Shown here one piece after another: positions 14,501-36,511 of a stretch of 44,833 nucleotides of DNA. The stretch spans positions 1 through 44,833 of the forward strand of contig JAFTPN010000016.1 in NCBI GenBank assembly GCA_017463245.1, read 5' to 3'. Position 1 is the stretch's first letter; the number at the start of each line of letters is the position of its first letter. Below the pieces are notes generated by a model. The model was not told the origin of the DNA, ran no database searches, and saw nothing but the letters and a program-made list of their open reading frames with translations. Made by a program: the position numbers and the translations under genes. This DNA is from Clostridia bacterium. GTDB lineage: Bacteria; Bacillota; Clostridia; Christensenellales; Aristaeellaceae.

Positions 14501-14537
14501 AAGGCAACGGCGTTTTTCAGCCGTTGCCTTCTTTGCT
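14501..14537. terminator. Bidirectional terminator between convergent genes
   Basis: An 11-bp perfect stem AAGGCAACGGC / GCCGTTGCCTT (14501-14511 and 14520-14530) with CTTTGCTT on the plus side and TTTTATGG on the minus side. It serves both the SSB-like gene and the pilus operon. Confidence 0.8.
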
Positions 14538-15247
14538 TACCTTGCCGGAATCTCCATCACCTTGTCGCACCGCACGGTCACGCGGGTCTCGCCGCCCAGG
14601 GTGCAGGTCAGCAGCGTCAGCGGATAGTCCGTTCCCTGCAGCGCCTCGATCTGGTCAGGCTGCAGGATCTCCGTTTCCGCCACCTCATAGCAGAATACAT
14701 TCCCCGCCATGTCCACAAAGCGCACCGTTGCGCCCGGACGCAGCTTTTTCAGGTTGCCGAAGTGGGACACGTAGTTGTGGGCGATTATGATCAGGTCGCC
14801 CGTGTAGGCCGAGCCGCTGAAGCGGCAGGGCGCTTTTTTCAGCCGGGGATAGCTCCACTCGCTCATCACCGGCAGCACCAGCCCCAGTTCCGGGATCTCC
14901 ACCGTGCCGATGTACATTTCCCCGTCCATCTCCACCGTGGGCATTTCCATGTCCGGAAAGCGGATGTAGTCCGGCGCAACGGTGGCCAGCGGCAGCACCG
15001 CCTGGGTGGCCTGGGGTGCTTCCGTTGCTTCCGCCACGGCTTCCGCCGTCGCCTCGGGCGTGGCCGCAGGTACAGGCGTGGCGGTGCTGCGCTGCTCGGC
15101 ACGCTGCACCCGCAGCTGCTCCACCACCATGGCCGAGGTCTCCCCAGCCTGCATTTCCGTGCGCATGTTGTACACCGTCAGTCCCAGGGCTGCCAGCATC
15201 AGCACCAGTCCCAGCGCCATCAGCACCGTTCCCTTACGCTTCTTCAT
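14537..15247 (-). CDS. Second sortase of the pilus operon, class uncertain
   Basis: A 236-residue membrane-anchored transpeptidase. It has one N-terminal helix (about residues 8-27), a Thr/Pro/Ala/Glu-rich stalk (about 55-95) and a C-terminal sortase domain with His157 (AHNYVSHFG), Cys215 (TLLTCTLGG) and Arg222 as the likely catalytic triad. It is not class C: the second C-terminal membrane helix is missing. It may attach the finished pilus, or the IPQTG minor pilin, to the wall. The ATG at 15247 overlaps the end of the minor pilin gene by 14 bases, and a longer frame has no ribosome binding site. It ends the operon at a terminator. Confidence 0.85.
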   Translation of the reverse strand: MKKRKGTVLMALGLVLMLAALGLTVYNMRTEMQAGETSAMVVEQLRVQRAEQRSTATPVPAATPEATAEAVAEATEAPQATQAVLPLATVAPDYIRFPDMEMPTVEMDGEMYIGTVEIPELGLVLPVMSEWSYPRLKKAPCRFSGSAYTGDLIIIAHNYVSHFGNLKKLRPGATVRFVDMAGNVFCYEVAETEILQPDQIEALQGTDYPLTLLTCTLGGETRVTVRCDKVMEIPAR

Positions 15248-16121
15248 GCTCGATGCTCTCCCTCCGGCGCATTGCCCAGCCAATGATGAACAGCACCGCG
15301 CCCAGGATGTCCAGCACCGGCACCGGCCACCAGGTCAGCCCGGTTTGGGGAATATCCGGCGGCGGAGCAGGCTTTTTGATCAGCGTGTTGGTGATCACCA
15401 GCGCGCCCTCCTGCCAGGCGTATTCCACCTGGTAGCCCTCCGGCACCTGCTCCCTGGCCGTCCACTCATGGATGCTCTCCAGCCCGGTCACTATTTGACT
15501 CCAGTTGTTGGCGGCGTTCAGCTCCAGCTCCATGTGCTTTTCGCCGTTGCGCATAAGATCGACCTTGATGCTCTCCGGCCGCTGCTTGGTGTAGCCCTCG
15601 TCCTTCCACAGCTTCACCATGCGGATGTCGCACTTCACCGGCTCCCGCTCATGCTTCACATCGGCCTGAACGTCGCGGCTCCAGCCGCCATCTTCCTTGC
15701 CCGGCAGGGACATCACAAAGGGCGCAAAATCATACGTCCAGCCGCCCAACTCCGCCTTTTTGCCCACCACGAGGTACATGCCGTCCTCCAGGCCATCCAG
15801 CTTCGCCAGACCGCTTTCGTTGGTTGTCACGTTTGTCCCGCCGGAAGTCGCCTGGCCTGCCAGCAATTCAGCCAGTGCTGCCCAGTCCCCGGCGCTTTCC
15901 AGCTTATTCACATCGTAATCGCCCGCATCATAGCCCGGCAGCAGGGCAAAGCTTGCCCCGTTCACCAGCGCGGCCACGCGGTAAACGCTGAACTCCGCCC
16001 CCGCCAGGCCATTCCCTTCCACCATCAGGCTCAGGGTGATGCTCCCCTGCCCGGCACAGGCCACGCAGGGCAGGAGCAGTAGGCACAGCAGCACGCACAG
16101 CAGTCGTTTGCACCTGTCCAT
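15234..16121 (-). CDS. Minor pilin with Cna_B-like domain and IPQTG sorting signal
   Basis: A 295-residue secreted wall protein. It has a signal peptide (about residues 1-24, ending near CVACAG), an N-terminal pilin-like domain (AGAEFSVYRVA), a Cna_B-type domain starting near VKLWKDEGY, and the sorting signal IPQTG at about 257 followed by a hydrophobic helix and a short charged tail. IPQTG is a variant of LPXTG. By position between the two sortases it may be the pilus base subunit. The start is the GTG at 16124 or ATG at 16121; AAAGGAG fits either. Confidence 0.82.
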   Translation of the reverse strand: MDRCKRLLCVLLCLLLLPCVACAGQGSITLSLMVEGNGLAGAEFSVYRVAALVNGASFALLPGYDAGDYDVNKLESAGDWAALAELLAGQATSGGTNVTTNESGLAKLDGLEDGMYLVVGKKAELGGWTYDFAPFVMSLPGKEDGGWSRDVQADVKHEREPVKCDIRMVKLWKDEGYTKQRPESIKVDLMRNGEKHMELELNAANNWSQIVTGLESIHEWTAREQVPEGYQVEYAWQEGALVITNTLIKKPAPPPDIPQTGLTWWPVPVLDILGAVLFIIGWAMRRRESIEHEEA

Positions 16122-16127
16122 CACGGT

Positions 16128-16976
16128 TTACCGCTCCTTTCGTTTCTTGCTTTTCCTGGTATTCCTGCCGCTGGTGGAGATCATCAGCATAATGAGCAAC
16201 AATAGCAGTAGCGGCGCTGCCACCACCGGAGCCACCAGCAGCGGCTCGATCTGCACCGCATCGGCCACCACACGGATGACCTTCTCCTCCTCCGGCGTTT
16301 CAATGCGGTGCCCCCGCACCAGCAGCCGGTGGGAGTTGATGCCATAGGGCGTGCAGGTGACCAGCGTGCACAGATCCTGCCCTTCAATGATCTCCAATCC
16401 AGACAGGTCATATGGTTCAACGATCAGAATCTGATCCACCTGATAGGTCAGCGTCTGATCCAATATTTTCAATGCAAAGGTGTCGCCGATCACCACCTTG
16501 TCCAGGTTGGAGAACAGCGTAGCCGAGGGCAGTCCCCGGTGGCCGGAAAGCGCGCTGTGGGTGCTTTCGCCGCCCACAGGCAGGGACGAACCCTCAATGT
16601 GTCCCACGGCGACCTGCAGCACCGCCTCGGACGTGGTGTGGTAAACCGGGAGCGAAACGCCGATGGAGGGTATCTCAATATACCCCATGATGCCCAGCCC
16701 TGTGGCATCCAGCAGAGAATTATACAGCGCCAGCTGCTCCTCGTTCAGGTAATATCGGTTTGTGCGGTGGCGCAGCTCCTCGTTATAAGCGAAGGCGTCC
16801 TGCCACATCTGGTCGTACCGATCGTTATCAATGGTCGCCACCGTTTGCGTATAGCTGGCGATGGCGCGGGACTGGTGGAAGGAATTCCAATAGTCCGCGA
16901 AGGTGGGATAGACCATCAAGGCCACGCCCACAAGCAGAGCCAGCACCAGCAGCCAATTTGTCCAACGTTTCTTCAT
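16128..16976 (-). CDS. srtC: Class C sortase (pilin polymerase)
   Basis: Class C sortases join pilin subunits through Lys-Thr isopeptide bonds at the outer membrane face. The 282-residue protein has an N-terminal helix (about 8-24), the catalytic residues His146 (SGHRGLP), Cys208 (TLVTCTPYG) and Arg217 (SHRLLVRGHR), and a C-terminal helix (about 245-265) ending in a basic tail, which is the class C topology. I do not see the DPW/DPF lid motif that many class C enzymes carry. AAAGGAG lies five bases before the ATG. It follows the major pilin gene after a spacer holding two hairpins. Confidence 0.92.
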   Translation of the reverse strand: MKKRWTNWLLVLALLVGVALMVYPTFADYWNSFHQSRAIASYTQTVATIDNDRYDQMWQDAFAYNEELRHRTNRYYLNEEQLALYNSLLDATGLGIMGYIEIPSIGVSLPVYHTTSEAVLQVAVGHIEGSSLPVGGESTHSALSGHRGLPSATLFSNLDKVVIGDTFALKILDQTLTYQVDQILIVEPYDLSGLEIIEGQDLCTLVTCTPYGINSHRLLVRGHRIETPEEEKVIRVVADAVQIEPLLVAPVVAAPLLLLLLIMLMISTSGRNTRKSKKRKER

Positions 16977-17121: not shown

Positions 17122-18612
17122 TTAGTTTTCCTCGCCCACGCGGCGCTTGGTGACCAGCAGCACCACGGCCAGCAGAACCAGCACACCGCCCACCACGTAG
17201 AAGATGGTGGTGCCGATGCCGCCGGTGGAGGGGAGCTCAGTGCCGCTCTTGTTTTCAACCTTTGTTTCAACGGTGGAATAAGACAGGGTATCGCTTCCTT
17301 CTGCCTTTGTCGCACCAGTAATCGTAACAGTTACAGCGCCCGCCAGCTTATTGTAGCCAGCAGGAGCAGCCGTCTCGAACAGGTAGTAGGTATCCGCATC
17401 CAAGCCTTCAATGTCGAATGTACCAGTCAAATCCGTGGTGATTTCAGTTACATGACTTACAGTACAATCTTCTTTTGCGCACACTTCATACTTGTTTTCG
17501 CCCAAATCGTGGAACTTCATGACCTTTTCGCCAGCGGTATCGGTACACAGCTTGAACGTAGCGTTCGCCAACGGAACTTCCTGCGTTTTAGTCTGCAGCT
17601 CTTCACCTTCAACAGTTGTTGTAGTAGTGACATTGGTATACTTGACAACCTTCATATCCCAAGTATAGGTGATAGTTTCGTCCTTAGGAGTCCACGAAGG
17701 CTTGCTTTCGTCACCATACTTTAGAATGACTTCGTTCGGGTTGCCAGTAAGGCCAACCTGAGCTTTTTCGTTCAGAGTAGCAGAGTAAGTAACGACAATT
17801 TCCGTACCAGCCGCGAGGGTAGAAATATATTCATTTTTGAATTCAACCGCAAAAGTGTAAGCCTGTGCGTTTTCACCCTCACCACCTGTTACATTTTCAC
17901 TTACGGTATAATTACTTGCGTCAACAACCGTTTCGCCAATCTTTACAATAACATCCGAGTTAAAATTCAAGCCTTCGGACATCTTATCGTACAGAACGTA
18001 GTTTTCTGCACCTGCCTTCACCGTAATGGTCGCCTGATAGTTCACGGTCTGATTAACATCCGCATCATTGGTTTCGCCCCAACTGGAATCGGAATCTTCC
18101 TGCACTTCCTTAGTAATGGTAGGAACTTCGTTCTTTTCTTCCATCACAACATTAGGATTGGTGGTATCCAAAGAACAAAGAGCACCCAGAGTAGTATCAA
18201 GCAAATAGTAACCCAAATTCAAACTGGAAAGCGTCACGGTTTCGCTGCTCGCCGTGGCAGTAGCAGCCACCGTCTTACCGGACAACTGTGTCTTAGCCAA
18301 TGCAGCAAAGTCAGCAACATCCGCTCCATCAACCCAAGTCACATAACCCTGCGGATCAATTTTGACATAATCAGTCTGTGTAGCCAACCAATCTGCCCAC
18401 GCAGAGTTTGCTTTGTAAGAGTAAACGCCACTTTGAGCATCATAGCTTTCCAGATACAAAATCTGGTATGCATTATAGGTTTGTCCAGAAATGGCATCGT
18501 TGATGGTAATGGAACCGCCGGTCAAAGTCCCCTCCGCCACCGCCACATTCATCACGGCCAGCAGCATCATAGCCGCCAGCAGCAGGGCAACCAGTTTCTT
18601 CATCGTAGTCAT
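17122..18612 (-). CDS. Major (backbone) pilin, LPSTG-anchored
   Basis: A 496-residue secreted pilin. The signal peptide is about residues 1-27 (MTTMKKLVALLLAAMM onward, cut near VAVAEG). A first domain follows; a Lys-containing stretch NEVPTITKEV near 160 fits the pilin motif that donates the linking lysine. Next come a D2-type isopeptide domain, a C-terminal Cna_B/SpaA-like domain with the E-box YYLFETAAPAGY, LPSTG at about 460-464, a membrane helix and basic tail. SrtC should cut LPSTG and polymerise it. The ATG at 18612 has AAAGGA eight bases upstream. The coding sequence is visibly more A+T-rich than the flanking housekeeping genes. Confidence 0.88.
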   Translation of the reverse strand: MTTMKKLVALLLAAMMLLAVMNVAVAEGTLTGGSITINDAISGQTYNAYQILYLESYDAQSGVYSYKANSAWADWLATQTDYVKIDPQGYVTWVDGADVADFAALAKTQLSGKTVAATATASSETVTLSSLNLGYYLLDTTLGALCSLDTTNPNVVMEEKNEVPTITKEVQEDSDSSWGETNDADVNQTVNYQATITVKAGAENYVLYDKMSEGLNFNSDVIVKIGETVVDASNYTVSENVTGGEGENAQAYTFAVEFKNEYISTLAAGTEIVVTYSATLNEKAQVGLTGNPNEVILKYGDESKPSWTPKDETITYTWDMKVVKYTNVTTTTTVEGEELQTKTQEVPLANATFKLCTDTAGEKVMKFHDLGENKYEVCAKEDCTVSHVTEITTDLTGTFDIEGLDADTYYLFETAAPAGYNKLAGAVTVTITGATKAEGSDTLSYSTVETKVENKSGTELPSTGGIGTTIFYVVGGVLVLLAVVLLVTKRRVGEEN

Positions 18613-18667
18613 GGTTGTTTTCCTTTCTCTTTTGTCGTTTAGTTTCATTGCGTTTCAGGAAAGCCGA

Positions 18668-21600
18668 TTATTCCTCTGCCCTCCTTTTCCGCTTATTCCC
18701 TCTATACAGCAGCGTCAGCGCCACGCCAGCCAGCAAGGCTCCTCCGCCCGTATACCATTGTGTGCCTCCCCCGCCCGTCTCCGGGAGGGTGTAGGTGGCG
18801 CGAAGTTGGTTGACCAGATACAGGTCAGCCTTCCACCAGCCATTGATAGTAACCCACAGCCCATCTGCATTCAACTCCGTCAGTTCCGAGCCATAGGAAT
18901 ACTTCACATCATAACTGCTTAGTTTCGATGTTCCGCTGCCATCCTTCACAGCCACCTCTTTGATGTGGTATTTCCCCTGATCTGCAACATCATTCAGCGT
19001 GATTGTCCAGTTATTTCCGCTGTTCAATGTGTATGTATCAATCAGTGTGGCTATCTCTTCATCGTTTGCAGATTTCGTTACTCGATAAAGCTCAAAGTCG
19101 ATGCTATACCCCGTCGGTGCAGCCATCGTCTGTCCCTCCGGGTCAAGCCATGCCTTTGTTATTTTTATCGAATTCTCGATCCACATATTGTGAATGGTGA
19201 TTTGCTCACTACCGTTCACAACCGTTGACGTATACGATGTGACCCAGTCGCTGTTCGGCTCCTTCACATAGTATGTGTAGGTGTAGTTATCATCCTCCAG
19301 TAGCAGATTGGTGAAGGTCTTGCTTCCTCCGCTGGTGCTAAACGTACCAACCACGGTGTCCGTTCCATCCACCTTGAAGCCCTGCGCCCAGAAGCGATCC
19401 TGCTCCGTTGTACAGCCACTCCAGCTGGATTGGCCCTCAAAATTGCCTCTAACCGCCCAAGTCACCGTACCGCTGTTGTTAACAGTACCAACGTTTATTG
19501 TGTAATCGACCTTCTGGCCGTCCGGCACAGGAGCACCGCCGCTGATAGACTGGCTTCCGCCATCCCAACTATAGGTAATCGAGCCATATTCCACCGCAGC
19601 GTTGTTAGCATCGCCTTCAAAGCCCGGATACCAGTTGCCATTGAAGTTCCACGTAGGATACCACGTAACCACAGACCCTTTTGCGAACCTTTTCGTCACT
19701 TTGTTCTTGACATTTCCTTCATACGAGATAACAAAGTCAATATCTACGTATTCAGCAGGTTCACCAACATTGGTCTTCGGCGTCGCTACCTGGTGCAGCT
19801 CAAAGCTGACATCGCCAGAGCCTCGTCTGATCCACTCCTTTTTCACAGTCAACGAGCCTGTCACAGACTGCTTCGCCTTATTCACCACCGTCGCCGCTGC
19901 CGCTGTTCCCAGCGTCACATTCTGTGCAGCGCCAGCAGTAAAGGGTGTTTCGGTGGATCCACTCAGCAGCACAATGGTGTCACCATCCAGGTACGCCACC
20001 TCTTCCACCGTGTAGTTCCCCGGCAGCAGGTCGCGCAAGGTGATGCTCCCCTTGGTGAACTTCAACCAGTTTTCCGCATCCTGGGTGTGGATGTAATCCG
20101 CAGTCACGCCATACTTCGTGGGATCAATCGCCACTCCGTTTGCATCCTTCACCCTCAAGTACACCGTATACGGAGGATTCTCACCTTCCGCCAGGCCTTC
20201 CCATTGCTTGGTCACAGTCAGACTGGTGCGGGCGGTGTTGGTCACGGTGATGCTGCCAGTGTGGGCGGTTTCCGTCAGCGTAGCGCCTGTACTGTCGCTG
20301 ACTTTCCATTCCGAAGCTGTGTCGCTTGTCAGCTGCGTGACCGTCGTGCCGCCATCTGTGCTGTAGCCGACCTCGTTCACCGTGTAGCTTCCCAGCGGAA
20401 GCTTATCCAGCGTGACATTGCTTGTTCCGGTGATCATCAGGCAGCCATCAGCAGAGACAGCACTTGCATCCACATATTTCAGCAGCGCTTCTTTGCCCAG
20501 CACAGCACCATCCTTGCTTACCTGCAAGTACACGACTGTGTTGCTGTGTTCCGTCCAGGGTGTCTGGCCATCCGCTTCCATCCAGGTCTTGCCGATGGTC
20601 AGCCGCGTGGCCTTGTTGGTGATCGTAATGTCACCCTGCGCCACGCCATTGCCGGTGTAGCTCGTCACAAAGCCTTCAACAGCGGCTTCCTGCACCTGGT
20701 AGGTGTAGGTCTCACCGGTGGCACTCACTCTGGGCAGGTCAGAGAGGGTCATGCTCCACCCGTTGTCTGCATTCAGCGTGTAGCTTGTTTCAGCATCCGG
20801 ATACTGCGTCGCGTTCTCCCCTGCCACCTGCCACAGCGTAAAGCTCACGCTGCCCGGCAGGTTTTCGGTCATGGCAGTGCCATCGGCATTCTGCCATACC
20901 TTGGCAACCGTCACGCCGGTGACATTTTTCGTGTTGGTGATGATAATGGGCGCATCCGCCGTATTGCCTGCCGCGCCGTCGTTGTTATCGTAGGTCACGG
21001 TGTAGTTGGCTGCGTCGTCTGCATCCTCCTCCACATAGTAGAAGTAGTAGTATTTGGTACCGTCCACCGTGGCACTCTTCTCCAGCTTGGTGAAGGAGCC
21101 TGTGGTGGTCGTGCCATCCAGGGTGATATACTGCGCGTTGTCCGCATTGAAGTCGGTATCCGCAATCTTCTCGCCCAGCGTTTCCCCGCCGTTCTCGTCA
21201 GTTGCTGTCACCGCTTGCTCATATCTGCGCAGATACACCTTCACGCTGGTGGTATCGCCGTTCCACACCTTTTTCACATGGATCTGGGCGGAATCCTCCA
21301 TCAGCTTGTTGGCGATGACCGCAGTCTCATCGCCATAGGTGATATTCGTTTCAAAATCGCCTGTGGTGACCTCCTCCACGGAGTATTCGTACTCGACCTG
21401 CACCTCGCCATTTTTGATCACCTGACATGGCAGCTCAACAAAGTTCTTCGTCCACTCATTCTCAGCATTGATGATGAAAGTATCGTACTTGTCATACACA
21501 TACAGCGTGGGAGCATCCGTAGAACCCTTCACCTTGCGGTACAGCTGAATCTGCACATCCTGCCATTGCTCCTCAGGCAAAGCATTTCCTTCTGCGTCCT

Positions 21601-24600
21601 GCCAGGCCTTCGTCACGCTCAGGGCGGTCGTGGTGATCGAGCTTTGGTCATAGGTATTGTTCAGCGTGTAGTTGTACCCCGCATCGCTGCCACCGCCGCC
21701 CACGCTGCTTTCCCAGCCAGGAACAGCACCTTCCTCAATGAAGTACACATAGTGGACGGTATTGCCCTCGGCATCCTTGCCCAGCAAGTCCAGGTCATCC
21801 ACGCTGGCCGACCAGCTGTCACCCGTCAGCGTCAGCACACGGGAGAAGCTGCTGTCCTGCTGCTTGCCCTCCAGCGCGGCTATGGTGGCGGGGGTGTAGA
21901 TGATAGAGGTAGTTACCTCTTCTGTACTTTCGTTACCATCGGGTGGAGTTTTTGTATAGGAGATATAGTCCTCCTCAAGAAGATTGGAATAGTCATAAAT
22001 CAACACACTCGTATCGCTGTTTATTTCTCCCAACGTATAGTATACATAGCAACTTGAATCATTTTGGTATTGCCAATATACAATATCTCCAGCGTTGATT
22101 TTCAACTCCCACAGGTTCTTTCCATCATGTGGTTTTATGCTGATTTTTACCGAATAACCCTGCTTAACTTTTGTTTCTGTAAGATATTCTTCAACACTGT
22201 CTTTGCTCATAGTCGTATATATTTTTACTGTATACTCCGTTTCAGAACTACTATCTCCATCCCCTTCCGTCCCCTGCTCCTTCAATTTCTCCCATTGTTC
22301 TTCCGTCAGCGCATAGCGGTACAGGTACACGCTCACAGATTCCGGCTTCTCACCTTCACCGCTCCACGTCTTGGTGACGTTCACGCTGGTGGCCTGCTTT
22401 TCGTTGGTGATGGTCAGTTTCTCGCCACCCTTGGATAGCTCGTGATAACTGCTGTCATTCACGAAACCATCGGGACCGATATAGTTCGGATTCTCATTCC
22501 CGCTGGCAAAGTAGAAATAGATCTCCTCGGGATCATCCGGCAGCTTGTAGCCAAAGGGCGCCTTCGTCTCCACAATGTAGTACGCCGTATCATTCTGGAG
22601 TTTGTACTTCTCCTGCTCAATACGGAACTTACCATCCGTTGTGGTAAAGAGCGTATCCGTTGCAACGAACGCATTTGCGGTGTTATCCCATACATACAGC
22701 GTAAACTCCGCCCCATCCAGCAGGATGCTGGCGTTGTTTTCGTCCACCTTCTCAATGGACATGGCCACGTTCATGGTGACCACGCTGCTGGAGGCCGTCC
22801 ACACATCGTTGCTGCTGGTGCTGTGGCTGCCTTCTTGTGCATTGTTATACCACAGAACATTCTTGAAAATATCCTGCAAGGACAACTCAGTAGGAATACT
22901 CAGGCTATTACAGGAACAGTATTTTGCCACCAGGTTCTTGCGGTCGATTTCCACCTCATATGCATATTCCAACACATATGCTTCATTATCCGGCACCGTT
23001 AATGTTAATGTGTGCGTTGTATTCGCCCACTGCGGCTCATTGGTGTTGCTCACCTGCTCAGAATAGGACATTGACCACAGGCTCTTGGCAAGCTCCAGGC
23101 CTTTCACCAGACTGCCGTCCTCGTTGGTCAGCAACGCCCCATCAGCATCTCGTTGCGCTCTGTAAAGCTTCACAGAGCTTGAATTCAGCGTTGCTGTGAT
23201 AAGCATATGCACAGTTTTCCAACAATTTGTGCATTGATAAGAATATGCTGTGTTATGCGTCAACACATCCACCACGGTAATCGTATCACCGCTGGCATTC
23301 AGATCTGCCGCCAGCTTGTTGATATCCACCGTGTATTCCAGCACATGTTCCTTCACCTCGCCGGTGTCGGACTCGTCCGCGCGCTGGTAATCAATGTACT
23401 CGCCCGTTTTGCCAAACTCTGCCCCATCCTCAACAGTCAGGGCAGGCACCTGCAAGGTAACAGTCTGGCTCTGGTCGTCACCGCCATAGGCAGAACTGTT
23501 TTCATTGGGCTTTTTCACCGTCACGCCCACCGTGTTGGTGAATGTGCCGATGGCAATATTCTGAACCTCTTCTTCCGATACATAGCCGTTCACGATATCA
23601 TCCGGCAGCTTGTAGACGAAATGCAGCCGCATCGTGTTGCCTTTCGATGCCCATGTGCCGGTCGTCGTCGGTGCAAGCGTAACGGAAACAGTCCCATCAC
23701 TCACAGCAGACGGGGTTATCTGAACGTTGTTATGGTCTCTGCCAGCAGGCGTGCCACCGGAGTAGTCGAAATCGGCGTCGCCCCAAGTGCCCGCCTTTAG
23801 CTGCACCAGCTCCAGCGCAACGGTCTCATCACCCACGGTGATAGACGGCACCTTGTCCGTCACAACGATCTGCTCATAATCGTCGTCAACGTACACTTCG
23901 ACCACCCAGGTGATCGTGTTATTCGTCGCCGTTACGGTTTTGGAACTGTTTGACGTATTCCCGCCCTCGTCTTTCTTAACAACGCGCTCGCTCCACGTAT
24001 AGGTCGACCATGCCTCTTTTTCATCAACCTTGATTTTGTTGCTGCTCGAGGCGGAGGTCGAGCTTATCTTTTGGGCGTTGAACATAGAGTTGTAGTTAAG
24101 CGTAATGGTGTTGCCGCCTTCCGTGGGTTTCAACGGAACATCATTCACATTGATCGTCCATGCATAATACTGTCCATTTGCAGTAGAATCAAATGGCATC
24201 AAAACGTCGCTGCCTACTGCCTTCACATTAAACGAATAGGATGTATTCCACCAGCTGGCACTTGTCACAGCACTATACAGCGCATTCATCTGCTCCTGCG
24301 TAAACCAGCGAACAGCAATTTCCTGTCCGTTTTCCCACATGCTCGCATCGCTCAGCGTGTCCTCGATCACCTGCCCCGCCGGAATGCCGCCCTCCGGCAG
24401 TTCAATGGTGGACGTCCAGTCGATCTCGATCGCGCTGAGATCCGTGGTGGTCGCCACGCTGTTGGTTTTCGTCACCGAGCCGCCAGCCGGAACAGTAACC
24501 GTCTGGCTCCCGGTAATCGTATTGTCGTTATAAATGAAGGTATAGGTGTTTACTTCTGTACCAGCCACCATGGACACTTCCGGATCGGTCGCATAGGTGA

Positions 24601-27600
24601 TGGTATACTTGCTCGTGTTGGTTCCATTCTCATCCCCATCAAAGCGCAGGAAATAAACTTCACCCTGCTTCACCAGGGAAACATTCGCATTCGGACTGAT
24701 AGCGAGATTGTTATTCAGATAGGATTGCAATGCATTATTATCCAGCAAAACACCATCGGTCGCACTTGCTTCCAGTTCTGCAAGCTTCTCTTCCGTCAGC
24801 CCCATGGCCTCCAGGAAGGCCTTGTCGGCCACCATGCCGCCGGCAATGTCCTTGTTGTTCTCATTAACGGTGATCGTCCAGTTGATCTTGCCCGTATTGC
24901 TATCGAACCAGCCCGACTTGCTTACCGTGTTGTTGGTAACGCTCATGGTGTGGGTAGAGCTGCCGGTAACGGATTCGTTCTTGTCATCCTTGGCGGTAGC
25001 CGTAACGGTGTTGCTCACATCGTTCACAGACACATTCATATCCAGTTCGTTTATTGGGTATTCCACCGTGATGGTATACTCGCCCCTGGCTTCACTCCCA
25101 CTCAAGTCAACTGCTGGCAGATCAAGCGTAAAGCTTCCATTTTCGCCCACACTAAGTTTAGCATCTGTAATCGTTGTTTTAGAAAGTTCTGTCCAATTTG
25201 CATCCTGTTTTTTCAGCTCAACATTTGCTATTTTCGGATCGCCATTCAGCGTCAGCCCCTCAGGAATCGTGATCACATCCGAAATATTCACATCCGGGAA
25301 GCCCTTGGTGGTGGACACCGTAATGGTATAAGTCAGCTTGTTCGCCGAAAGAACAGCGCTGCCGGACTTATTCACCGACATGTCATAATTCTGGGTCACG
25401 CTGGGGTTTTCACCGTAAATCTTTTCAGGGGAAACCTCAATCGTTTCCTCCCCCACGGAAATGAAATAGTCGCCATCCTCTTGCCTGCTGTCGCTATTCA
25501 TGGTCGCGCTGAAGGCGATGGTACCTCCAATGTCCTCTGTGCCGGTCAGCTTCTCCGACTCATAATAGATCTGCATGGCATAGGTTCCGTCTGTGTTTTG
25601 CACAAAACGGTACATCATGCCATTGCCATTTGTATCGGGCTGCCAGTTCTTCTCATTGCTTTCCTTAACCAGCTGAGAAGCATCAATACCAGTCAACGGC
25701 AGAACCAGAGGGTTATCTCTCGTGTATCCCTTTGCCACCGAGGGCGAAATGGCATAATTCGCAGAAAACTGCAAATTAAACACATCCGCAGAACTGTCAT
25801 ACGTCACATCGGCAACGACCTTCGACAGCGTGAAGGGCGTGGGCGTTTCTGTTTCTTCCTCCCCCGTCTCGGCCAGAGCAGCGCATGCCTCGGTGTGGGT
25901 ATGCTCTTCCAGGGTGCAGATCAGGTTACCCTCCGCGTCATAGCAGCCGGTGTCGCTTTCGTCCAGAAGCATAATGCCGCCCTGCACGCTGCTGGTGGAG
26001 TGCGTATGCGCCGCCAGACCGCAAGCATGGCTGCAGTCCTCGGTGTGCGCGTGGTATTCCAGACCGCACACGATATTCCAGTTTTCGTCCAGACAGGTTT
26101 CATCGTGGATATGTTCTTCCATGCCACAGGAGTAGCTCACCGTGGCTTCCAGATCGCTCTGCGTGGCAGGCTGAAGCACAGAGTTGTCCAGCTGCACAGG
26201 GGCAGGTGTGGCCGTAGGCTCGGCGGAAGGCTCCACCGTCGGTTCCTCCGTCACTTCCACCGTGGCCGTAGGCTCAGCGGAAGGTTCCACCGTCGGTTCT
26301 TCCGTCACCTCCACCGTGGCCGTAGGCTCGGCAGAAGGCTCCGCAGTCGGTTCCTCCGTCACTTCCACCGTAGCGGTAGGCTCGGCAGAAGGCTCCACCG
26401 TCGGTTCCTCCGTCACCTCCACCGTGGCCGTGGGCTCAGCGGAAGGCTCCACCGTCGGTTCTTCCGTCACCTCCACCGTGGCCGTGGGCTCAGCGGAAGG
26501 CTCCACCGTCGGTTCCTCCGTCACTTCCACCGTGGCAGTAGGCTCAACAGAAGGCTCCACCGTCGGTTCCTCCGTCACCTCCACCGTGGCCGTGGGCTCA
26601 GCGGAAGGCTCCACCGTCGGTTCTTCCGTCACCTCCACCGTGGCCGTGGGCTCAGCGGAAGGCTCCACCGTCGGTTCTTCCGTCACCTCCACCGTGGCCA
26701 TAGGCTCAGCGGAAGGTTCCGCCGTCGGTTTCTCCGTCACTTCCACCGTGGCGGTAGGCTCGGCAGAAGGCTCCGCAGTCGGCTCACTCGTGGGTTCTTC
26801 AGTCGAATCAGGATAGCACTCGTCTGTGTGGGTATGTTCTACCTGCGTGCAGAGCAGCACCGTTTCATAGCAGTCGGTGCCATGGGCATGACCCTCCGTG
26901 GTCACCGTTTCCACCGTGACACACGCCTCCGTGTGCTGATGCTCCATCAGTTCCGCATAGCCGCAGATCGCCCAGCGCTTGTTCTGCTTGTCCGTCACAA
27001 AGCAGCTGCTTTCATGCTTGTGCAGCTCATCATGGTCGCATACGCGCACCTTTTCCACCGTATAGCAATCCGCGCCATGGGTGTGTACACCCGCGCCAGC
27101 CTCCTGGCCGCAGGCAAGCACCTCCGTCACCGCATAGCAGGATGCCTCGTGCTGATGCGCACCCGCGCCGGTTTCCACGCCGCAGGCAATGCTGGTGGCA
27201 TAGCAGTCCGCTCCATGGGCATGGCTGCCCTGGCCTTCTTCCATACCGCAGATAATGCTCTCGCTGGTGGTATAGCATTCATCGCCATGGGAATGACCAG
27301 CAGTTTCTTCCCTGGTGCAGCTCAGTTGGCTCCGGCTGGTGTAGCAGCTCTCCCCATGGGCGTGCCCGGAGGATTCCTCGCTGCCGCAATTCAGCTTCTG
27401 CGTATGGGTATAGCAAGCCTCACCATGGGCATGGCCGGCCGACTCCTGGGCGGAGCAGGTCAGCGCTCTGCTTGTGGTGTAGCAATTTCCATCATGTTCG
27501 TGGGTTTCGTCCGCACAGGTCAGGCTGGATCCTTCCGTATAACATCCGTCCCCGTGGGTATGGGCGCCCTCGCCCTCGGCTGTGCCGCAGCTCAGGGCAG

Positions 27601-28399
27601 TCTCGGTGATATAGCAGCTTTCGCCATGGCTGTGGGCGCCTTCGCCCTCGGTCTTGCCGCAGCTCAGCTCGCTGATGTTCTCATAGCAGCCTTCCCCATG
27701 GCTGTGGGCTTCCGCCTCAGCCTCCGTGCAGGTCAGGCTGCGCTGGGTCTGCTTGCATGCTTCTGTGTGCGCATGACCCGCATTCTCCTCCACCGTGCAG
27801 GTCAGCACAGTAGCATTGCATTCCTCGGTGTGAATGTGTCCCTCGTTTTCCTCCAGGCCGCAGGTCGGTTCCTCTGCGGTCACCTGGGTATAGCATTCAG
27901 CAATGTGCTGGTGACCCTCAGTTTCCTCCGTTTCGCAGACCAGCGTGCTGATCTCCTCATAGCAGCTGGCGCTGTGATTCCGCTTGATCTTCTCCTTCAG
28001 CGTGCAGATCAGGTTTCCTTCGGCATCCACGCACATCTCGTCATGCCGGTGGAAATACTCGGTGGACTGGCCGCAGCCCAGCTCATGCTCGTCGTTGTAG
28101 CATTCGCTGGTATGCTCATGGGGCTGGAAGGTGCACATCAGGCTGATGTGTTCAACCGTCGTTGCCTCCCGTTCCTCTTGGGTGCAGAGCAGGTTGGCGG
28201 TGTAGCACGCCTCCGTGTGCTGATGGGCTTCCACGCCGCATTGCGCATCACGCTCCATGGTGATGCCAGGCAGCATCAAAGCATAGGTCGTCGCCAACGC
28301 CACCACCACAGAAAGACCGGCCACGATCCTGTTTCGCACTTTTCGCTTTTTCGCCTGTCTGATATACTGTTCTGCCCGTCTGCGGGTTGCAGTTCTCAC
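18668..28399 (-). CDS. Giant LPETG-anchored adhesin with Cys/His repeat region and Cna_B stalk
   Basis: At about 3243 residues this is the largest gene of the window, probably the pilus tip or a free wall adhesin. In order: basic N-terminus and hydrophobic export segment with TYALMLPGITM (to about 50); about 20 Cys/His units (54-528); ten 18-residue Pro/Glu/Thr repeats (about 549-729); a second short Cys/His block (756-840); Ig-like adhesin segments (about 850-1870); a SpaA-like domain with E-box YYIVETKAPFGY (about 1880-1965); eight Cna_B domains opening with KxW (near 2003, 2257, 2374, 2497, 2599, 2727, 2851, 3081); LPETG at 3205, membrane helix and basic tail. Cna_B stalks commonly form internal isopeptide bonds. 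I prefer the GTG at 28399, which has AGGAGGT upstream; the ATG at 28441 has none. Confidence 0.9.
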   Translation of the reverse strand: MRTATRRRAEQYIRQAKKRKVRNRIVAGLSVVVALATTYALMLPGITMERDAQCGVEAHQHTEACYTANLLCTQEEREATTVEHISLMCTFQPHEHTSECYNDEHELGCGQSTEYFHRHDEMCVDAEGNLICTLKEKIKRNHSASCYEEISTLVCETEETEGHQHIAECYTQVTAEEPTCGLEENEGHIHTEECNATVLTCTVEENAGHAHTEACKQTQRSLTCTEAEAEAHSHGEGCYENISELSCGKTEGEGAHSHGESCYITETALSCGTAEGEGAHTHGDGCYTEGSSLTCADETHEHDGNCYTTSRALTCSAQESAGHAHGEACYTHTQKLNCGSEESSGHAHGESCYTSRSQLSCTREETAGHSHGDECYTTSESIICGMEEGQGSHAHGADCYATSIACGVETGAGAHQHEASCYAVTEVLACGQEAGAGVHTHGADCYTVEKVRVCDHDELHKHESSCFVTDKQNKRWAICGYAELMEHQHTEACVTVETVTTEGHAHGTDCYETVLLCTQVEHTHTDECYPDSTEEPTSEPTAEPSAEPTATVEVTEKPTAEPSAEPMATVEVTEEPTVEPSAEPTATVEVTEEPTVEPSAEPTATVEVTEEPTVEPSVEPTATVEVTEEPTVEPSAEPTATVEVTEEPTVEPSAEPTATVEVTEEPTVEPSAEPTATVEVTEEPTAEPSAEPTATVEVTEEPTVEPSAEPTATVEVTEEPTVEPSAEPTATPAPVQLDNSVLQPATQSDLEATVSYSCGMEEHIHDETCLDENWNIVCGLEYHAHTEDCSHACGLAAHTHSTSSVQGGIMLLDESDTGCYDAEGNLICTLEEHTHTEACAALAETGEEETETPTPFTLSKVVADVTYDSSADVFNLQFSANYAISPSVAKGYTRDNPLVLPLTGIDASQLVKESNEKNWQPDTNGNGMMYRFVQNTDGTYAMQIYYESEKLTGTEDIGGTIAFSATMNSDSRQEDGDYFISVGEETIEVSPEKIYGENPSVTQNYDMSVNKSGSAVLSANKLTYTITVSTTKGFPDVNISDVITIPEGLTLNGDPKIANVELKKQDANWTELSKTTITDAKLSVGENGSFTLDLPAVDLSGSEARGEYTITVEYPINELDMNVSVNDVSNTVTATAKDDKNESVTGSSTHTMSVTNNTVSKSGWFDSNTGKINWTITVNENNKDIAGGMVADKAFLEAMGLTEEKLAELEASATDGVLLDNNALQSYLNNNLAISPNANVSLVKQGEVYFLRFDGDENGTNTSKYTITYATDPEVSMVAGTEVNTYTFIYNDNTITGSQTVTVPAGGSVTKTNSVATTTDLSAIEIDWTSTIELPEGGIPAGQVIEDTLSDASMWENGQEIAVRWFTQEQMNALYSAVTSASWWNTSYSFNVKAVGSDVLMPFDSTANGQYYAWTINVNDVPLKPTEGGNTITLNYNSMFNAQKISSTSASSSNKIKVDEKEAWSTYTWSERVVKKDEGGNTSNSSKTVTATNNTITWVVEVYVDDDYEQIVVTDKVPSITVGDETVALELVQLKAGTWGDADFDYSGGTPAGRDHNNVQITPSAVSDGTVSVTLAPTTTGTWASKGNTMRLHFVYKLPDDIVNGYVSEEEVQNIAIGTFTNTVGVTVKKPNENSSAYGGDDQSQTVTLQVPALTVEDGAEFGKTGEYIDYQRADESDTGEVKEHVLEYTVDINKLAADLNASGDTITVVDVLTHNTAYSYQCTNCWKTVHMLITATLNSSSVKLYRAQRDADGALLTNEDGSLVKGLELAKSLWSMSYSEQVSNTNEPQWANTTHTLTLTVPDNEAYVLEYAYEVEIDRKNLVAKYCSCNSLSIPTELSLQDIFKNVLWYNNAQEGSHSTSSNDVWTASSSVVTMNVAMSIEKVDENNASILLDGAEFTLYVWDNTANAFVATDTLFTTTDGKFRIEQEKYKLQNDTAYYIVETKAPFGYKLPDDPEEIYFYFASGNENPNYIGPDGFVNDSSYHELSKGGEKLTITNEKQATSVNVTKTWSGEGEKPESVSVYLYRYALTEEQWEKLKEQGTEGDGDSSSETEYTVKIYTTMSKDSVEEYLTETKVKQGYSVKISIKPHDGKNLWELKINAGDIVYWQYQNDSSCYVYYTLGEINSDTSVLIYDYSNLLEEDYISYTKTPPDGNESTEEVTTSIIYTPATIAALEGKQQDSSFSRVLTLTGDSWSASVDDLDLLGKDAEGNTVHYVYFIEEGAVPGWESSVGGGGSDAGYNYTLNNTYDQSSITTTALSVTKAWQDAEGNALPEEQWQDVQIQLYRKVKGSTDAPTLYVYDKYDTFIINAENEWTKNFVELPCQVIKNGEVQVEYEYSVEEVTTGDFETNITYGDETAVIANKLMEDSAQIHVKKVWNGDTTSVKVYLRRYEQAVTATDENGGETLGEKIADTDFNADNAQYITLDGTTTTGSFTKLEKSATVDGTKYYYFYYVEEDADDAANYTVTYDNNDGAAGNTADAPIIITNTKNVTGVTVAKVWQNADGTAMTENLPGSVSFTLWQVAGENATQYPDAETSYTLNADNGWSMTLSDLPRVSATGETYTYQVQEAAVEGFVTSYTGNGVAQGDITITNKATRLTIGKTWMEADGQTPWTEHSNTVVYLQVSKDGAVLGKEALLKYVDASAVSADGCLMITGTSNVTLDKLPLGSYTVNEVGYSTDGGTTVTQLTSDTASEWKVSDSTGATLTETAHTGSITVTNTARTSLTVTKQWEGLAEGENPPYTVYLRVKDANGVAIDPTKYGVTADYIHTQDAENWLKFTKGSITLRDLLPGNYTVEEVAYLDGDTIVLLSGSTETPFTAGAAQNVTLGTAAAATVVNKAKQSVTGSLTVKKEWIRRGSGDVSFELHQVATPKTNVGEPAEYVDIDFVISYEGNVKNKVTKRFAKGSVVTWYPTWNFNGNWYPGFEGDANNAAVEYGSITYSWDGGSQSISGGAPVPDGQKVDYTINVGTVNNSGTVTWAVRGNFEGQSSWSGCTTEQDRFWAQGFKVDGTDTVVGTFSTSGGSKTFTNLLLEDDNYTYTYYVKEPNSDWVTSYTSTVVNGSEQITIHNMWIENSIKITKAWLDPEGQTMAAPTGYSIDFELYRVTKSANDEEIATLIDTYTLNSGNNWTITLNDVADQGKYHIKEVAVKDGSGTSKLSSYDVKYSYGSELTELNADGLWVTINGWWKADLYLVNQLRATYTLPETGGGGTQWYTGGGALLAGVALTLLYRGNKRKRRAEE
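25883..26133 (-). repeat. Second, degenerate Cys/His block of the giant adhesin
   Basis: Four units follow the Pro/Glu/Thr linker: HIHDETC, HAHTEDC, HTHSTSS (Cys lost) and HTHTEAC, with Cys before each His pair. The linker therefore interrupts, not ends, the Cys/His region. Confidence 0.7.
26214..26753 (-). repeat. Ten tandem 54-bp units encoding TATVEVTEEPTVEPSAEP
   Basis: Ten complete 18-codon units differ by a few bases each, then a partial unit runs to about 26798. They form a Pro/Glu/Thr/Val linker, likely extended and rigid. Near-identical units are prone to slippage or recombination, so copy number may vary between strains. It is in-frame coding sequence, not a CRISPR. Confidence 0.92.
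26816..28240 (-). repeat. About 20 tandem Cys/His units (C-x5..9-HxH-x3-C-Y)
   Basis: By eye I count 20 HxHxxxC motifs in 475 residues, most followed by Tyr, each preceded by a Cys 6 to 10 residues before the first His; one more unit (NHSASCY) has lost a His. Unit length is about 22-25 residues, with Glu, Gly, Thr and Ser between. Examples: CSAQESAGHAHGEACY and CGSEESSGHAHGESCY. The Cys-His-His-Cys spacing could bind Zn or another metal or form disulfides. I do not know an assigned function for this repeat. Confidence 0.85.
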
Positions 28400-28459
28400 A
28401 GCAATCAGCACCTCCTCTGTATTCCCAGCGCCGCAGCGCATTACAATTAGTAGAAATTC

Positions 28460-29044
28460 TTATTCGATCCAGCCGAAGCGCTCAAAGGGCCACACCCGCA
28501 AAAGCACCCGACCCACGATCTGCTCTTCGCTCACGCAGCCCACCGCCGTGTTGCGGCTGTCGGCCGAGGTGGCGCGGTGGTCACCCATCACAAACAGCCT
28601 GCCGTCCGGCACCTGGTAGGGCAATTCAATGTTCACTTCGCCAAAGGCCTTTTCTTCCAGGTAGGGCTCCTCGATCAGCTGATCATTCACATACACATTG
28701 CCGTCAGCATCCAGGTTCACCCATTCGCCAGGGAAAGCAATGACCCGCTTCACCAATATCTTGTTGTTGTAATACAGGCAGATCACGTCCCCGCGCTGAA
28801 ACTCGCTGCGCTTCAGCGTCACCACGATGTCTCCATCGTCCATGCAGGGCGTCATGGAGGAACCGTAGATCTGCAAAACGGGCATAAACAGCATGGCCAC
28901 CAAAATGGCCACCGCCGCTACGCAGACCAGCGTGAACACGGTGCTGCGCAGCACACGGCCATAGTTTCGGCGATACTTTTCCCGCTTCAATTCCTTTTCC
29001 AGCTGCTCCACCGAGGGCAGTACAACCGGCTTTCCCTTTTTCAT
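28460..29044 (-). CDS. lepB: Signal peptidase I of the pilus operon
   Basis: A 194-residue type I signal peptidase. It has a cytoplasmic charged N-terminus of about 30 residues, one membrane helix (about 34-56), then the catalytic Ser63 (GSSMTP) and Lys99 (VKRVIAFPGE), and the conserved GDHRATSADSR box near 155. It cleaves signal peptides of exported proteins. Its place inside the operon, with ATGA overlap to the coiled-coil gene and just before the giant adhesin, suggests a dedicated peptidase as in SipA of some Gram-positive pilus loci. A housekeeping role is also possible since no other copy is visible here. Confidence 0.93.
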   Translation of the reverse strand: MKKGKPVVLPSVEQLEKELKREKYRRNYGRVLRSTVFTLVCVAAVAILVAMLFMPVLQIYGSSMTPCMDDGDIVVTLKRSEFQRGDVICLYYNNKILVKRVIAFPGEWVNLDADGNVYVNDQLIEEPYLEEKAFGEVNIELPYQVPDGRLFVMGDHRATSADSRNTAVGCVSEEQIVGRVLLRVWPFERFGWIE

Positions 29045-29631
29045 ATTCCTTTGCTCCTCTTCCAGAAGGAACGGCGGCCCTTGTTTGTTACAGGCACCGT
29101 ATCCACATGCTGCTCAGCCTGCTGGCGGATCAGTTCCGCATCCGCATTGGCCTGGTGCAACATTCTGTCACACTCCTGCCGGGTGGAATCCAGCAGCTGG
29201 CTGGCTTGCTCCTCTGCCTCCTGCATCAGCCGCTCCGCCTTCATCCGCGCATCACGGACGATCTCCAGCGCCCGGTTTTCCAGGGCGGACGTCATGCGCT
29301 CCACGCACTCATCGGCATCGCTCACCATCTGTTCGGCATGGGTCTGTGCCTCGTCCACCAGCTTTTCAGCCTTGGCCTCCTGCTCCAGGCAGACGCGGTA
29401 GATGTTCTCTGTGTACAGATCCACCGCCCGCTGCGCCGCGCCGATCAGGTCGTTGATCTCCACCGCAGCGCTGGCCATGCTCCCCGCCTCACGGATCGTC
29501 ATTTCGCGGGTTTGCACGGCTTCTTCGGCTTGCGTCAGCCTCTCCTGCAGGGCAACATTCTCCTTGCCCTGGGCAATCAAAAGCTCCAGCAGCTCGCTGC
29601 GGTGAAGCTTGCGCAATTCTCTGTCCGTCAT
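29041..29631 (-). CDS. Coiled-coil protein heading the pilus operon
   Basis: A 196-residue soluble protein of unknown function. It opens with MTDRELRKLHRSELLELLI and is then almost all heptad-like helix rich in Glu, Ala, Gln and Arg (about residues 20-180), with a basic C-terminus (GRRSFWKRSKGI). It recalls DivIVA or ATPase-stalk-like coiled coils, without clear homology. The ATG at 29631 is chosen for AAAGGA and the start of the helix pattern; a longer frame crosses the promoter. It overlaps lepB by ATGA. It may organise pilus assembly at the membrane from inside, which is inference. Confidence 0.7.
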   Translation of the reverse strand: MTDRELRKLHRSELLELLIAQGKENVALQERLTQAEEAVQTREMTIREAGSMASAAVEINDLIGAAQRAVDLYTENIYRVCLEQEAKAEKLVDEAQTHAEQMVSDADECVERMTSALENRALEIVRDARMKAERLMQEAEEQASQLLDSTRQECDRMLHQANADAELIRQQAEQHVDTVPVTNKGRRSFWKRSKGI

Positions 29632-31369: not shown

Positions 31370-33118
31370 TTACTTGGAATACTTCGGACGAGCGGTGTAG
31401 GTGGTGTGGAGCAGCTCGTGAGCCTTGTGGCTGTTGGGCTTTTCCAGATACTCGTCGTAGAGCTTCTTGATGGAGGGGTTCTCGTGGCTCTTGCGCAGGG
31501 CCTTGCCAGCATCTTCACGATACAGGGCAGCGGCACGCAGAGCCTTGGGATCGCACTCCATGCGCTTGGCAGCGGAAACGATGGGCTGGCCGCCGCCGGT
31601 CACGCAGCCGCCAGGGCAGCCCATGACCTCGATGAAGTGATAGGTCTTCTCGCCAGCCTTGATGGCGTCCAGCAGCTTGGCAGCATTCGCGGTGCCATGA
31701 GCCACGGCCACGTTCAGGGTCACGTCGCCAACCTTCACAGAGGCTTCCTTCACGCCTTCCACGCCACGCACAGCATCGAAGTCCACCTTCTCCAGGGTCT
31801 CGCCGGTCACCAGCTCGTAAGCGGTGCGGAGCGCAGCCTCCATCACGCCGCCAGTAGCGCCAAAGATGACGCCAGCGCCGGTGGATTCGCCCAGCATATC
31901 GTCGAAGTCCTCGTCAGGCAGGTTCACAAAGTCGATGCCGGCTTCCTTGATCATCTTGGCCAGCTCGCGGGTGGTGATGACGCAATCCACGTCAGCCAGG
32001 CCGTTCACGCTCAGCTCAGGACGGGCAGCCTCGTACTTCTTGGCGGTGCAGGGCATCACAGACACAACGGCGATGTCCTTGGGATCAATGCCAGCCTTCT
32101 CGGCATAGTAGCTCTTGATCATGGCGCCTTCCATCTCGTGGGGAGACTTGCAGGAAGACAGGTTCGGGATGAACTCGGGATAGTAGTGCTCGCAGAACTT
32201 GATCCAGCCGGGAGAGCAGGAGGTGATCATGGGCAGCACGCCACCGTTGTTCAGGCGGCCGATCAGCTCGGTGCCTTCCTCCATGATGGTCAAGTCAGCA
32301 GCCCAGTCGGTATCGAACACCTTGTCGAAGCCCAGGCGGCGCAGGGCTGCGGCCATCTTGCCGGTGACCAGGGAGCCGATCTCCATGCCGAATTCCTCGC
32401 CCAGGGCGGCGCGGACGGCGGGAGCGGGCTGCACCACAACGTGCTTCTTGGGGTCAGCCAGCAGATCCCACACCTGCTGGGTGCCATCCTTCTCATACAG
32501 GGCGCCAACGGGGCAGGCCGCGATGCACTGGCCGCAGTTGATGCAGCTCATCTCCGCCAGCTTCATGTTCCAGGGAGACTCGATGGAGGTCATGAAGCCA
32601 CGGTTCACGGGGCCGATCACTCCCACAGCCTGGGTGTGATTGCAGGCAGCCACGCAGCGGCGGCACAGCACGCACTTGTTGTTGTCGCGCACGATGGAGG
32701 GAGACAGATCGTCGATCTCGTGCTTGGTCATCGCGCCGGCGAAGCGGTCGCCGTCTTCCACGCCCAGCTCGTTGCACAGGGTCTGCAGCTCGCACTTCTG
32801 GTTGCGGGGGCAGGTCAGGCAGCGCTTGTCGTGGTTGGACAGCAGCAGCTCCAGGTTGGTCTTGCGAGCCTTGCGGATCGCGGGGGTGTTGGTCTTCACG
32901 ACCATGTTGGGGGTCACGGGCAGCACGCAGGCAGCCTGCAGGGCGCGGGCGCCGGTGTCCACCACGCACAGACGGCAAGCGCCGATCTGGTTGATGTCCT
33001 TCAAATAGCACAGGGTGGGGATGTTGATGCCAGCCTTCTTCGCGGCTTCCAGAACCGTCGTGCCAGCGGGAACTTCAACACTCACGCCGTCAATCGTCAG
33101 TTGAATCAGCTGTTCCAT
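31370..33118 (-). CDS. hndD: [FeFe] hydrogenase catalytic subunit of an Hnd/Hyd-type NAD(P)-linked complex
   Basis: A 582-residue subunit that reduces protons or oxidises H2. Cluster sites in order: [2Fe-2S] Cys37/48/51/64; His96-Cys100/103/109 [4Fe-4S]; two [4Fe-4S] at Cys149/152/155/159 and Cys192/195/198/202. H-cluster motifs are L1 TSCSPGW, L2 MPCTAKKYEA and L3 EVMGCPGGCVTGGGQP, then a C-terminal small-subunit helix (NPSIKKLYDEYLEKPNSHKA). L1 has one Cys where many hydrogenases have TSCCP; I recall this form in HndD-type enzymes. With hndA, hndB and hndC it likely forms an electron-bifurcating complex using ferredoxin and NAD(P)H. AAAGGAGG precedes the ATG. Confidence 0.95.
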   Translation of the reverse strand: MEQLIQLTIDGVSVEVPAGTTVLEAAKKAGINIPTLCYLKDINQIGACRLCVVDTGARALQAACVLPVTPNMVVKTNTPAIRKARKTNLELLLSNHDKRCLTCPRNQKCELQTLCNELGVEDGDRFAGAMTKHEIDDLSPSIVRDNNKCVLCRRCVAACNHTQAVGVIGPVNRGFMTSIESPWNMKLAEMSCINCGQCIAACPVGALYEKDGTQQVWDLLADPKKHVVVQPAPAVRAALGEEFGMEIGSLVTGKMAAALRRLGFDKVFDTDWAADLTIMEEGTELIGRLNNGGVLPMITSCSPGWIKFCEHYYPEFIPNLSSCKSPHEMEGAMIKSYYAEKAGIDPKDIAVVSVMPCTAKKYEAARPELSVNGLADVDCVITTRELAKMIKEAGIDFVNLPDEDFDDMLGESTGAGVIFGATGGVMEAALRTAYELVTGETLEKVDFDAVRGVEGVKEASVKVGDVTLNVAVAHGTANAAKLLDAIKAGEKTYHFIEVMGCPGGCVTGGGQPIVSAAKRMECDPKALRAAALYREDAGKALRKSHENPSIKKLYDEYLEKPNSHKAHELLHTTYTARPKYSK

Positions 33119-33141
33119 TGTTTTGTCCTCCTTTGCACGAT

Positions 33142-34938: not shown

Positions 34939-34966
34939 GGGTACTCCTCCTCATGTGTCGTAGAGA

Positions 34967-35335: not shown

Positions 35336-35338
35336 AGC

Positions 35339-35887: not shown

Positions 35888-35917
35888 CAGGGTTCACCTA
35901 CCTCAGCGTTTCAGCGA

Positions 35918-36388: not shown

Positions 36389-36456
36389 GGTACATGAAAC
36401 CTCCTTACAATGGTTGCAACTCCAATGCGCAGAGAGATTCCGCGCATATTGTAGAT

Positions 36457-36485: not shown

Positions 36486-36511
36486 GCACCATTATCTGCA
36501 AAGATAAACGT

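What the first reader, a model, noticed from the sequence alone, without database searches (positions are those of the whole stretch)
26816..28240. Giant adhesin with about 20 tandem Cys/His units
Seen: 20 HxHxxxC motifs, mostly followed by Tyr, each with a Cys 6-10 residues earlier, in 475 residues, at the exposed N-terminus of an LPETG-anchored protein. Known: CHHC spacing suits zinc or other soft metals, and paired Cys suits disulfides. Inference: an extracellular metal-binding or redox-sensitive array, for metal capture, adhesion to host zinc-rich proteins, or a zinc-locked stalk. I recall similar units in gut Clostridia proteins, but no assigned function.
Basis: partly seen in the sequence, partly recalled or inferred. 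Interest (0 to 1): 0.75.

Follow-up and report, generated by a model that had tools for sequence, protein, structure and literature searches.

The report
Metal-clasp repeats on a pilus tip
A surface protein of a gut-type Clostridia bacterium, probably the tip of a pilus, starts with a long row of about twenty small cysteine-and-histidine units that look like individual metal (probably zinc) clasps and match no described domain family that was searched.

Summary
The minus-strand gene 18668-28441 (3257 aa, LPETG anchor) carries 20 HxHxxxC motifs in residues 66-542, 19 of them with their own Cys 5-9 residues before the first His, plus three more after a PT-rich linker. No convincing Pfam, NCBIfam or PDB sequence match covers the unit. 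The strongest evidence is conservation: against relative L048, all 88 ligand codons keep their residue (44 Cys, 44 His) despite 23 synonymous changes, while other array residues are 204/399 identical. Ligands were fully kept in 10 of 12 aligned pairs, not in the two with L050. That points to CHHC metal sites rather than plain disulfides; VKOR was found in 0 of 40 genomes and DsbA not in this one. The gene sits in a pilus operon: signal peptidase, giant protein, backbone pilin, sortase, probable basal pilin, second sortase. Relatives occur in 38 of 200 sampled family genomes, this one included. The first four units are position-specific, suggesting an ordered domain rather than a loose sponge.

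The parts
18668..28441 (-). 3257-aa giant surface protein, probable pilus tip subunit
   Evidence: ORF; Pfam PT, four Cna_B stretches, SpaA, sub-threshold Gram_pos_anchor; LPXTG model over cut-off; pilus operon context
28253..28330 (-). hydrophobic export segment ending ...TTYALMLPGITM just before the array (limits by eye)
   Evidence: sequence; cleavage not tested
26816..28240 (-). Cys/His array, residues 68-542, 20 HxHxxxC motifs (19 with own first Cys)
   Evidence: conservation
28004..28075 (-). third motif: hydrophobic pair before HxH, then a DxEGNLIC-type link; like units recur in relatives
   Evidence: loose pattern found somewhere in 27 of 68 array proteins; N-end units 1-4 position-specific
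27962..28006 (-). degenerate unit: first His lost, both Cys kept; same state in L048
26208..26782 (-). PT-rich linker, 54-bp unit x 10.6 copies, 90% matches
   Evidence: Pfam PT
25883..26128 (-). three further HxHxxxC units after the linker (residues 772-853)
18683..18790 (-). LPETG sorting signal
28460..29044 (-). operon signal peptidase (S26); SMxP and KRV boxes seen in the sequence (box names recalled)
   Evidence: Pfam PF10502, 1.1e-33; sequence
17122..18648 (-). backbone pilin, LPSTG
   Evidence: Pfam GramPos_pilinBB, SpaA, Gram_pos_anchor
16128..16976 (-). sortase (TLVTC), probably pilus type
   Evidence: Pfam PF04203; class not tested
15234..16124 (-). probable basal pilin, Cna_B, IPQTG near the end
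14537..15283 (-). second sortase (TLLTC)
29041..29631 (-). small coiled-coil-like protein at the head of the operon (start chosen by eye)
   Evidence: no Pfam match; similar stretches upstream of the signal peptidase in L048, L049, L050, L052 and L104

Best explanation
The array is a row of mini-domains, each holding one metal ion, most likely Zn2+, with the quartet C1-x4-8-H-x-H-x3-C2, joined by short beta-hairpins (C2-Y...L-x-C1). It forms an ordered, metal-clasped head or stalk at the outer end of the tip subunit of a sortase-assembled pilus in an anaerobe, where metal does the job that disulfides do elsewhere, and presents a variable surface for adhesion. Shown here: the repeat, the equal conservation of all four ligand residues, position-specific N-terminal units, and the pilus operon. 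Inferred: metal binding itself, zinc as the metal, the hairpin fold, the tip position, adhesion.
For: Against L048 all 88 ligand codons (22 units) keep their residue, 23 of them with a synonymous change, while other array residues are 204/399 identical. Of 12 pairs aligned, ten kept all aligned ligand Cys and His (for example window/L049 28/28 and 28/28, other 137/333; L024/L029 26/26 and 26/26, other 147/349; L057/L058 14/14 and 14/14, other 63/118). Non-motif His after the array is kept at 9 of 21. Arrays begin with a C1 in 47 of 51 and end with a C2 in 46 of 51, so quartets close within a unit. C2-to-next-C1 spacing is odd in 399 of 457 cases, mostly 7 or 9, as for hairpins lengthened in pairs. 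N-end units 1-4 best match their own index in 38, 30, 32 and 25% of 351 array pairs, chance 9%, shuffled control 7-11%; window unit i best matches L048 unit i in 17 of 20. Cys per residue is 0.087 in arrays and 0.006 after them. No VKOR in 40 genomes, no DsbA in this genome. Operon; signal peptidase directly upstream in 13 of 21 related loci, a related sortase downstream in 9 of 21; same order in L104.
Against: No structure and no metal data. The two pairs with L050 kept only 28/34 Cys and 30/34 His, and 29/44 and 30/44; misalignment of unequal arrays is my guess and was not checked. One search counted only ungapped positions; two of its ten clean pairs are near-identical (L061/L062, L019/L020) and three share the same three proteins. 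Non-motif His inside the window/L048 span is also fairly well kept (7/10). The invariant ligand columns of A1 and A3 are no evidence: the rows were chosen for having them. Three array-bearing genomes have a DsbA-family protein over cut-off; other thiol oxidases were not searched. 24 of 51 arrays depart from perfect C1-C2 alternation. C-end units are hardly position-specific (9-18%, chance 9%). No Zur-type site near the operon: one 3-mismatch hit in the window, at 9049, chance mean 0.47.
Confidence: 0.6

Rival explanations
1. Disulfide-knotted stalk: each unit has a C1-C2 (or cross-hairpin C2-C1) disulfide and the His serve another purpose.
For: Surface protein; paired Cys in most units; C2 and next C1 may face each other across a hairpin (spacings); 3 of 40 genomes, all array-bearing, have a DsbA-family protein over cut-off; DsbA homologues are said to be found in many Firmicutes (PMC9974433, passage).
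Against: Does not explain why both His are kept as strictly as the Cys. VKOR 0 of 40; DsbA not in this genome. Firmicutes largely exclude Cys from exported proteins, though the passage says especially aerobic species (PMC9974433).
Confidence: 0.17
2. Metal sponge: a loose array that scavenges or buffers Zn or Cu at the surface, without a defined fold or adhesion role.
For: Many sites per molecule and a variable number of them (1 to 31 strict units, median 5, in 68 proteins, many of them cut by locus ends).
Against: Position-specific N-terminal units and unit-by-unit correspondence with L048 are not expected of interchangeable sponge units; pilus operon; no metal-uptake family among the 20 other window ORFs scanned; no Zur-type site.
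Confidence: 0.12
3. Metal-bridged interaction in trans: sites shared between facing arrays or with host zinc-rich proteins glue cells together, as in the G5 zinc zipper of Aap.
For: Probable outermost position; Zn-dependent dimerisation by G5 repeats of Aap (PMC3110253, start of abstract in the listings).
Against: Most arrays begin with C1 and end with C2, so each quartet can be completed within one chain.
Confidence: 0.07
4. Thiol chemistry: reactive Cys capture mucin or other host proteins by mixed disulfides, the His tuning the thiol.
For: Pilus tip proteins with covalent chemistry exist, such as the thioester of Cpa (PMC7900414, passages).
Against: Two strictly kept His and a second Cys are more than a reactive thiol needs.
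Confidence: 0.04

Closest known systems
Tip subunits of sortase-assembled pili, e.g. Cpa of group A Streptococcus and CnaA of Clostridium perfringens
   Same: Operon with a signal-peptidase homologue, pilins and sortase (PMC7900414 and PMC8088525, passages)
   Different: N-terminal Cys/His array instead of thioester or collagen-binding domains. The peptidase here shows SMxP and KRV boxes ([quoted passage not shown]
G5 repeats of Aap (zinc zipper)
   Same: Repeats of a Gram-positive surface protein with a zinc role (PMC3110253, listing abstract)
   Different: Dimerisation in trans there; here Cys/His quartets that can close within one chain. No G5 match in Pfam
Polyhistidine triad (Pht) proteins
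   Same: His-rich metal motifs on surface proteins (recalled, from no call)
   Different: HxxHxH without Cys (recalled); no such Pfam match here
CHHC and CCHC zinc fingers
   Same: Four Cys/His ligands in a small unit (recalled)
   Different: No significant Pfam or PDB sequence match; exported and in tandem arrays

Membership tests
Sortase-assembled pilus tip subunit | Gene beside a backbone pilin and sortase | tested here: met
   same order in L104; sortase downstream in 9 of 21 related loci
Sortase-assembled pilus tip subunit | LPXTG-type sorting signal | tested here: met
   TIGR01167 19.3 bits, cut-off 15.9; Pfam anchor below cut-off
Sortase-assembled pilus tip subunit | Joined to the backbone pilin at the fibre tip | not testable with these tools
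   needs immunogold or cross-link analysis
Zinc-binding module | Four Cys/His ligands per unit under purifying selection | tested here: met
   (10 of 12 pairs; the two with L050 not)
Zinc-binding module | Bound metal and ligand geometry | not testable with these tools
   structure prediction switched off
Known Pfam or NCBIfam domain | Convincing match within the array | tested here: not met
   window: none. 21 segments: only weak hits, best E 0.032 in Pfam and 0.088 in NCBIfam, each in 1-2 members
Disulfide-rich repeat | Cys conserved independently of other residues | tested here: not met
   both His equally conserved
Disulfide-rich repeat | Thiol oxidase in the host | tested here: inconclusive
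   VKOR 0 of 40; DsbA over cut-off 3 of 40, none in this genome; others not searched

The most novel reading that the evidence does not exclude
An undescribed extracellular repeat fold of Clostridia in which one metal per roughly 20-25 residues takes the place of disulfides and builds a length-adjustable rod with a conserved outer end at a pilus tip, so that host zinc withholding would soften or switch off adhesion.
Probability: 0.2. Interest if true: 0.8.

Novelty: new variant of a known kind. Interest (0 to 1): 0.58.

Why it matters
It would be an unmodelled domain of adhesins in gut-type anaerobes, present in 38 of 200 sampled genomes of the family (this one included) and scattered through the class (12 of 391, this one included). 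It would show how oxygen-free surface proteins can be stabilised without disulfides, and it gives a link between zinc and adhesion that can be tested on a short fragment.

Tried and rejected
Chance: rejected by shuffles. Known domain: nothing convincing; PDB sequences gave no hit with the array or with a relative's segment, and with the profile only TTC29 at E 0.65, judged chance. Inter-unit sites (C2 with the next C1 plus an HxH): not favoured, because most arrays begin with C1 and end with C2. Phage origin: no match in viral contigs to the six peptide patterns used; the one phage record hit carries a pilus operon. Plasmids: no match. Zur-type site: chance level. Papers (open-licence library only): unit strings or motif notations gave 0 papers, as did word combinations; the listings showed no title on such units, but they were capped at 15, 8 and 10 of 376, 120 and 17. 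In one search the CxxC class (24) was printed for 14 only; those looked mostly like hairpin intervals, not lost units. Dropped before counts: duplicate loci and the antisense frame of L065; duplicates; arrays under 7 units or without a clear N-terminus (27 of 68 kept); gapped positions. Thiol oxidases: 40 genomes, 24 array-bearing, picked by me from the 38 and 12 genomes with matches (both counts include this genome), plus 16 family genomes without a match. Alignment A2 fell out of register and was not used.

Full report
What is there. The window holds a minus-strand gene, 18668-28441, of 3257 aa. After a hydrophobic export-type segment, residues 66-542 carry 20 HxHxxxC motifs; shuffles give 0.34 on average and 4 at most. 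Nineteen have their own first Cys 5-9 residues before the first His, and Tyr follows the last Cys in 15 of 20. Three more motifs follow a PT-rich linker. Tandem Repeats Finder sees that linker as 10.6 copies of 54 bp with 90% matches, but in the array only 2.4 copies at 77%: the array units have diverged one by one yet kept their Cys and His.

Known domains. Pfam finds PT, four Cna_B stretches, SpaA and a sub-threshold anchor, and a sub-threshold bMG10; NCBIfam finds only the LPXTG anchor. In 21 four-unit segments from the window and relatives the best Pfam hit has E 0.032 and the best NCBIfam hit 0.088, each in one or two members; weak metallothionein (0.67) and PCYCGC (0.11) hits were also listed. 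PDB sequences gave nothing convincing.

Relatives. An HMM of window double units matches 38 of 200 sampled genomes of the family in 14 of 50 genera. A 21-row profile matches 12 of 391 in the class and 3 of 299 in the phylum. All three counts include this genome. A pattern scan of named genomes gave 21 loci from assemblies labelled Clostridiales, Clostridia, Eubacteriales, Oscillospiraceae, Lachnospiraceae, Dorea, Coprococcus and Neglectibacter; one title names goat colon. In most frames examined the first motif lies within about 120 residues of the frame start; L029, L041, L046 and L047 are exceptions.

Metal or disulfide. In the 51 arrays, 462 Cys have His at both -6 and -4 and 16 have only one; this is biased, because the arrays were found by the motif. 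HxH is followed by Cys in 462 of 470 cases. Over 68 arrays, 485 units keep all four ligands in regular spacing, 43 keep HxHxxxC without a first Cys in range (several of the 14 printed have a longer loop), 8 lack the last Cys in place, 3 the first His and 1 the second. Alignment columns of A3 are not evidence, since its rows were picked by a pattern that demands the ligands. The pair test is better. Against L048 all 88 ligand codons keep their residue, 23 with a synonymous change, and 204 of 399 other array residues are identical; over the longer span 68-853, linker included, other residues are 273/530. Of 12 pairs, ten keep every aligned ligand: window/L048, window/L049, L059/L063, L059/L066, L063/L066, L061/L062, L019/L020, L024/L029, L057/L058 and L025/L028. 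Two of these are near-identical proteins and three share the same three proteins. The two pairs with L050 do not (28/34 Cys and 30/34 His; 29/44 and 30/44), possibly from misalignment of unequal arrays, unchecked. Gapped positions were left out. Non-motif His after the array is kept at 9 of 21, within the span at 7 of 10. Equal constraint on His and Cys is what a CHHC metal site predicts. VKOR was found in 0 of 40 genomes (control: 3 of 14), DsbA over cut-off in 3 of 40 (control: 8 of 14), all three array-bearing, none in this genome. A review passage says Firmicutes largely exclude Cys, especially aerobic species, although many have DsbA homologues (PMC9974433).

Architecture. C2 to the next C1 is odd in 399 of 457 cases, mostly 7 or 9, and several links in relatives read like CYDEEGNLIC, as a hairpin with a turn would; the fold is inference. 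Arrays start with C1 in 47 of 51 and end with C2 in 46 of 51, and 27 of 51 alternate perfectly, so most quartets can close within their unit. In 27 arrays the first four units best match their own index in 38, 30, 32 and 25% of 351 pairs (chance 9%, shuffled 7-11%), units 5 and 6 in 15%, and the C-end in 9-18%. A loose pattern for the third window unit occurs somewhere in 27 of 68 array proteins; its rank was not checked. Window unit i best matches L048 unit i in 17 of 20. An ordered structure with a conserved outer end fits better than a sponge.

Context. The gene lies in a pilus-type operon: a small coiled-coil-like protein, signal peptidase, the giant protein, backbone pilin (LPSTG), sortase, probable basal pilin (IPQTG), second sortase. 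A related signal peptidase is directly upstream in 13 of 21 loci and a related sortase downstream in 9 of 21, several loci being cut short. MT835974, deposited as a phage clone from human faeces, shows the same order. In group A Streptococcus pili, assembly requires the signal peptidase homologue SipA/LepA in several types and Cpa sits at the tip (PMC7900414, passages); the C. perfringens locus has three pilins, a signal peptidase and a sortase (PMC8088525, passages). By analogy the giant protein is the tip subunit.

Verdict. Tandem CHHC metal clasps at the probable tip of a Clostridia pilus, most likely zinc and structural, with adhesion as the probable end use.

Noticed in passing
L104 (MT835974.1), 4346-14024: A record deposited as Bacteriophage sp. 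from human faeces carries a pilus operon with an array protein (open frame of 1724 codons, 6 motifs); probably a bacterial contig labelled as phage.
   Followed up: partly
window 26208-26782: PT-rich linker of near-identical 54-bp repeats beside the diverged array; possibly length-variable between strains.
   Followed up: no
window 31370-39232: Genes for a NADH-type iron hydrogenase complex and a second iron hydrogenase upstream of the pilus operon.
   Followed up: no
L041, L046, L047: Arrays of 2-4 motifs lying inside proteins rather than at the N-terminus; L041 has a pAdhesive_15 domain.
   Followed up: partly
L027: Array split over two open frames, 4 and 8 motifs; a broken gene or an assembly error.
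   Followed up: no
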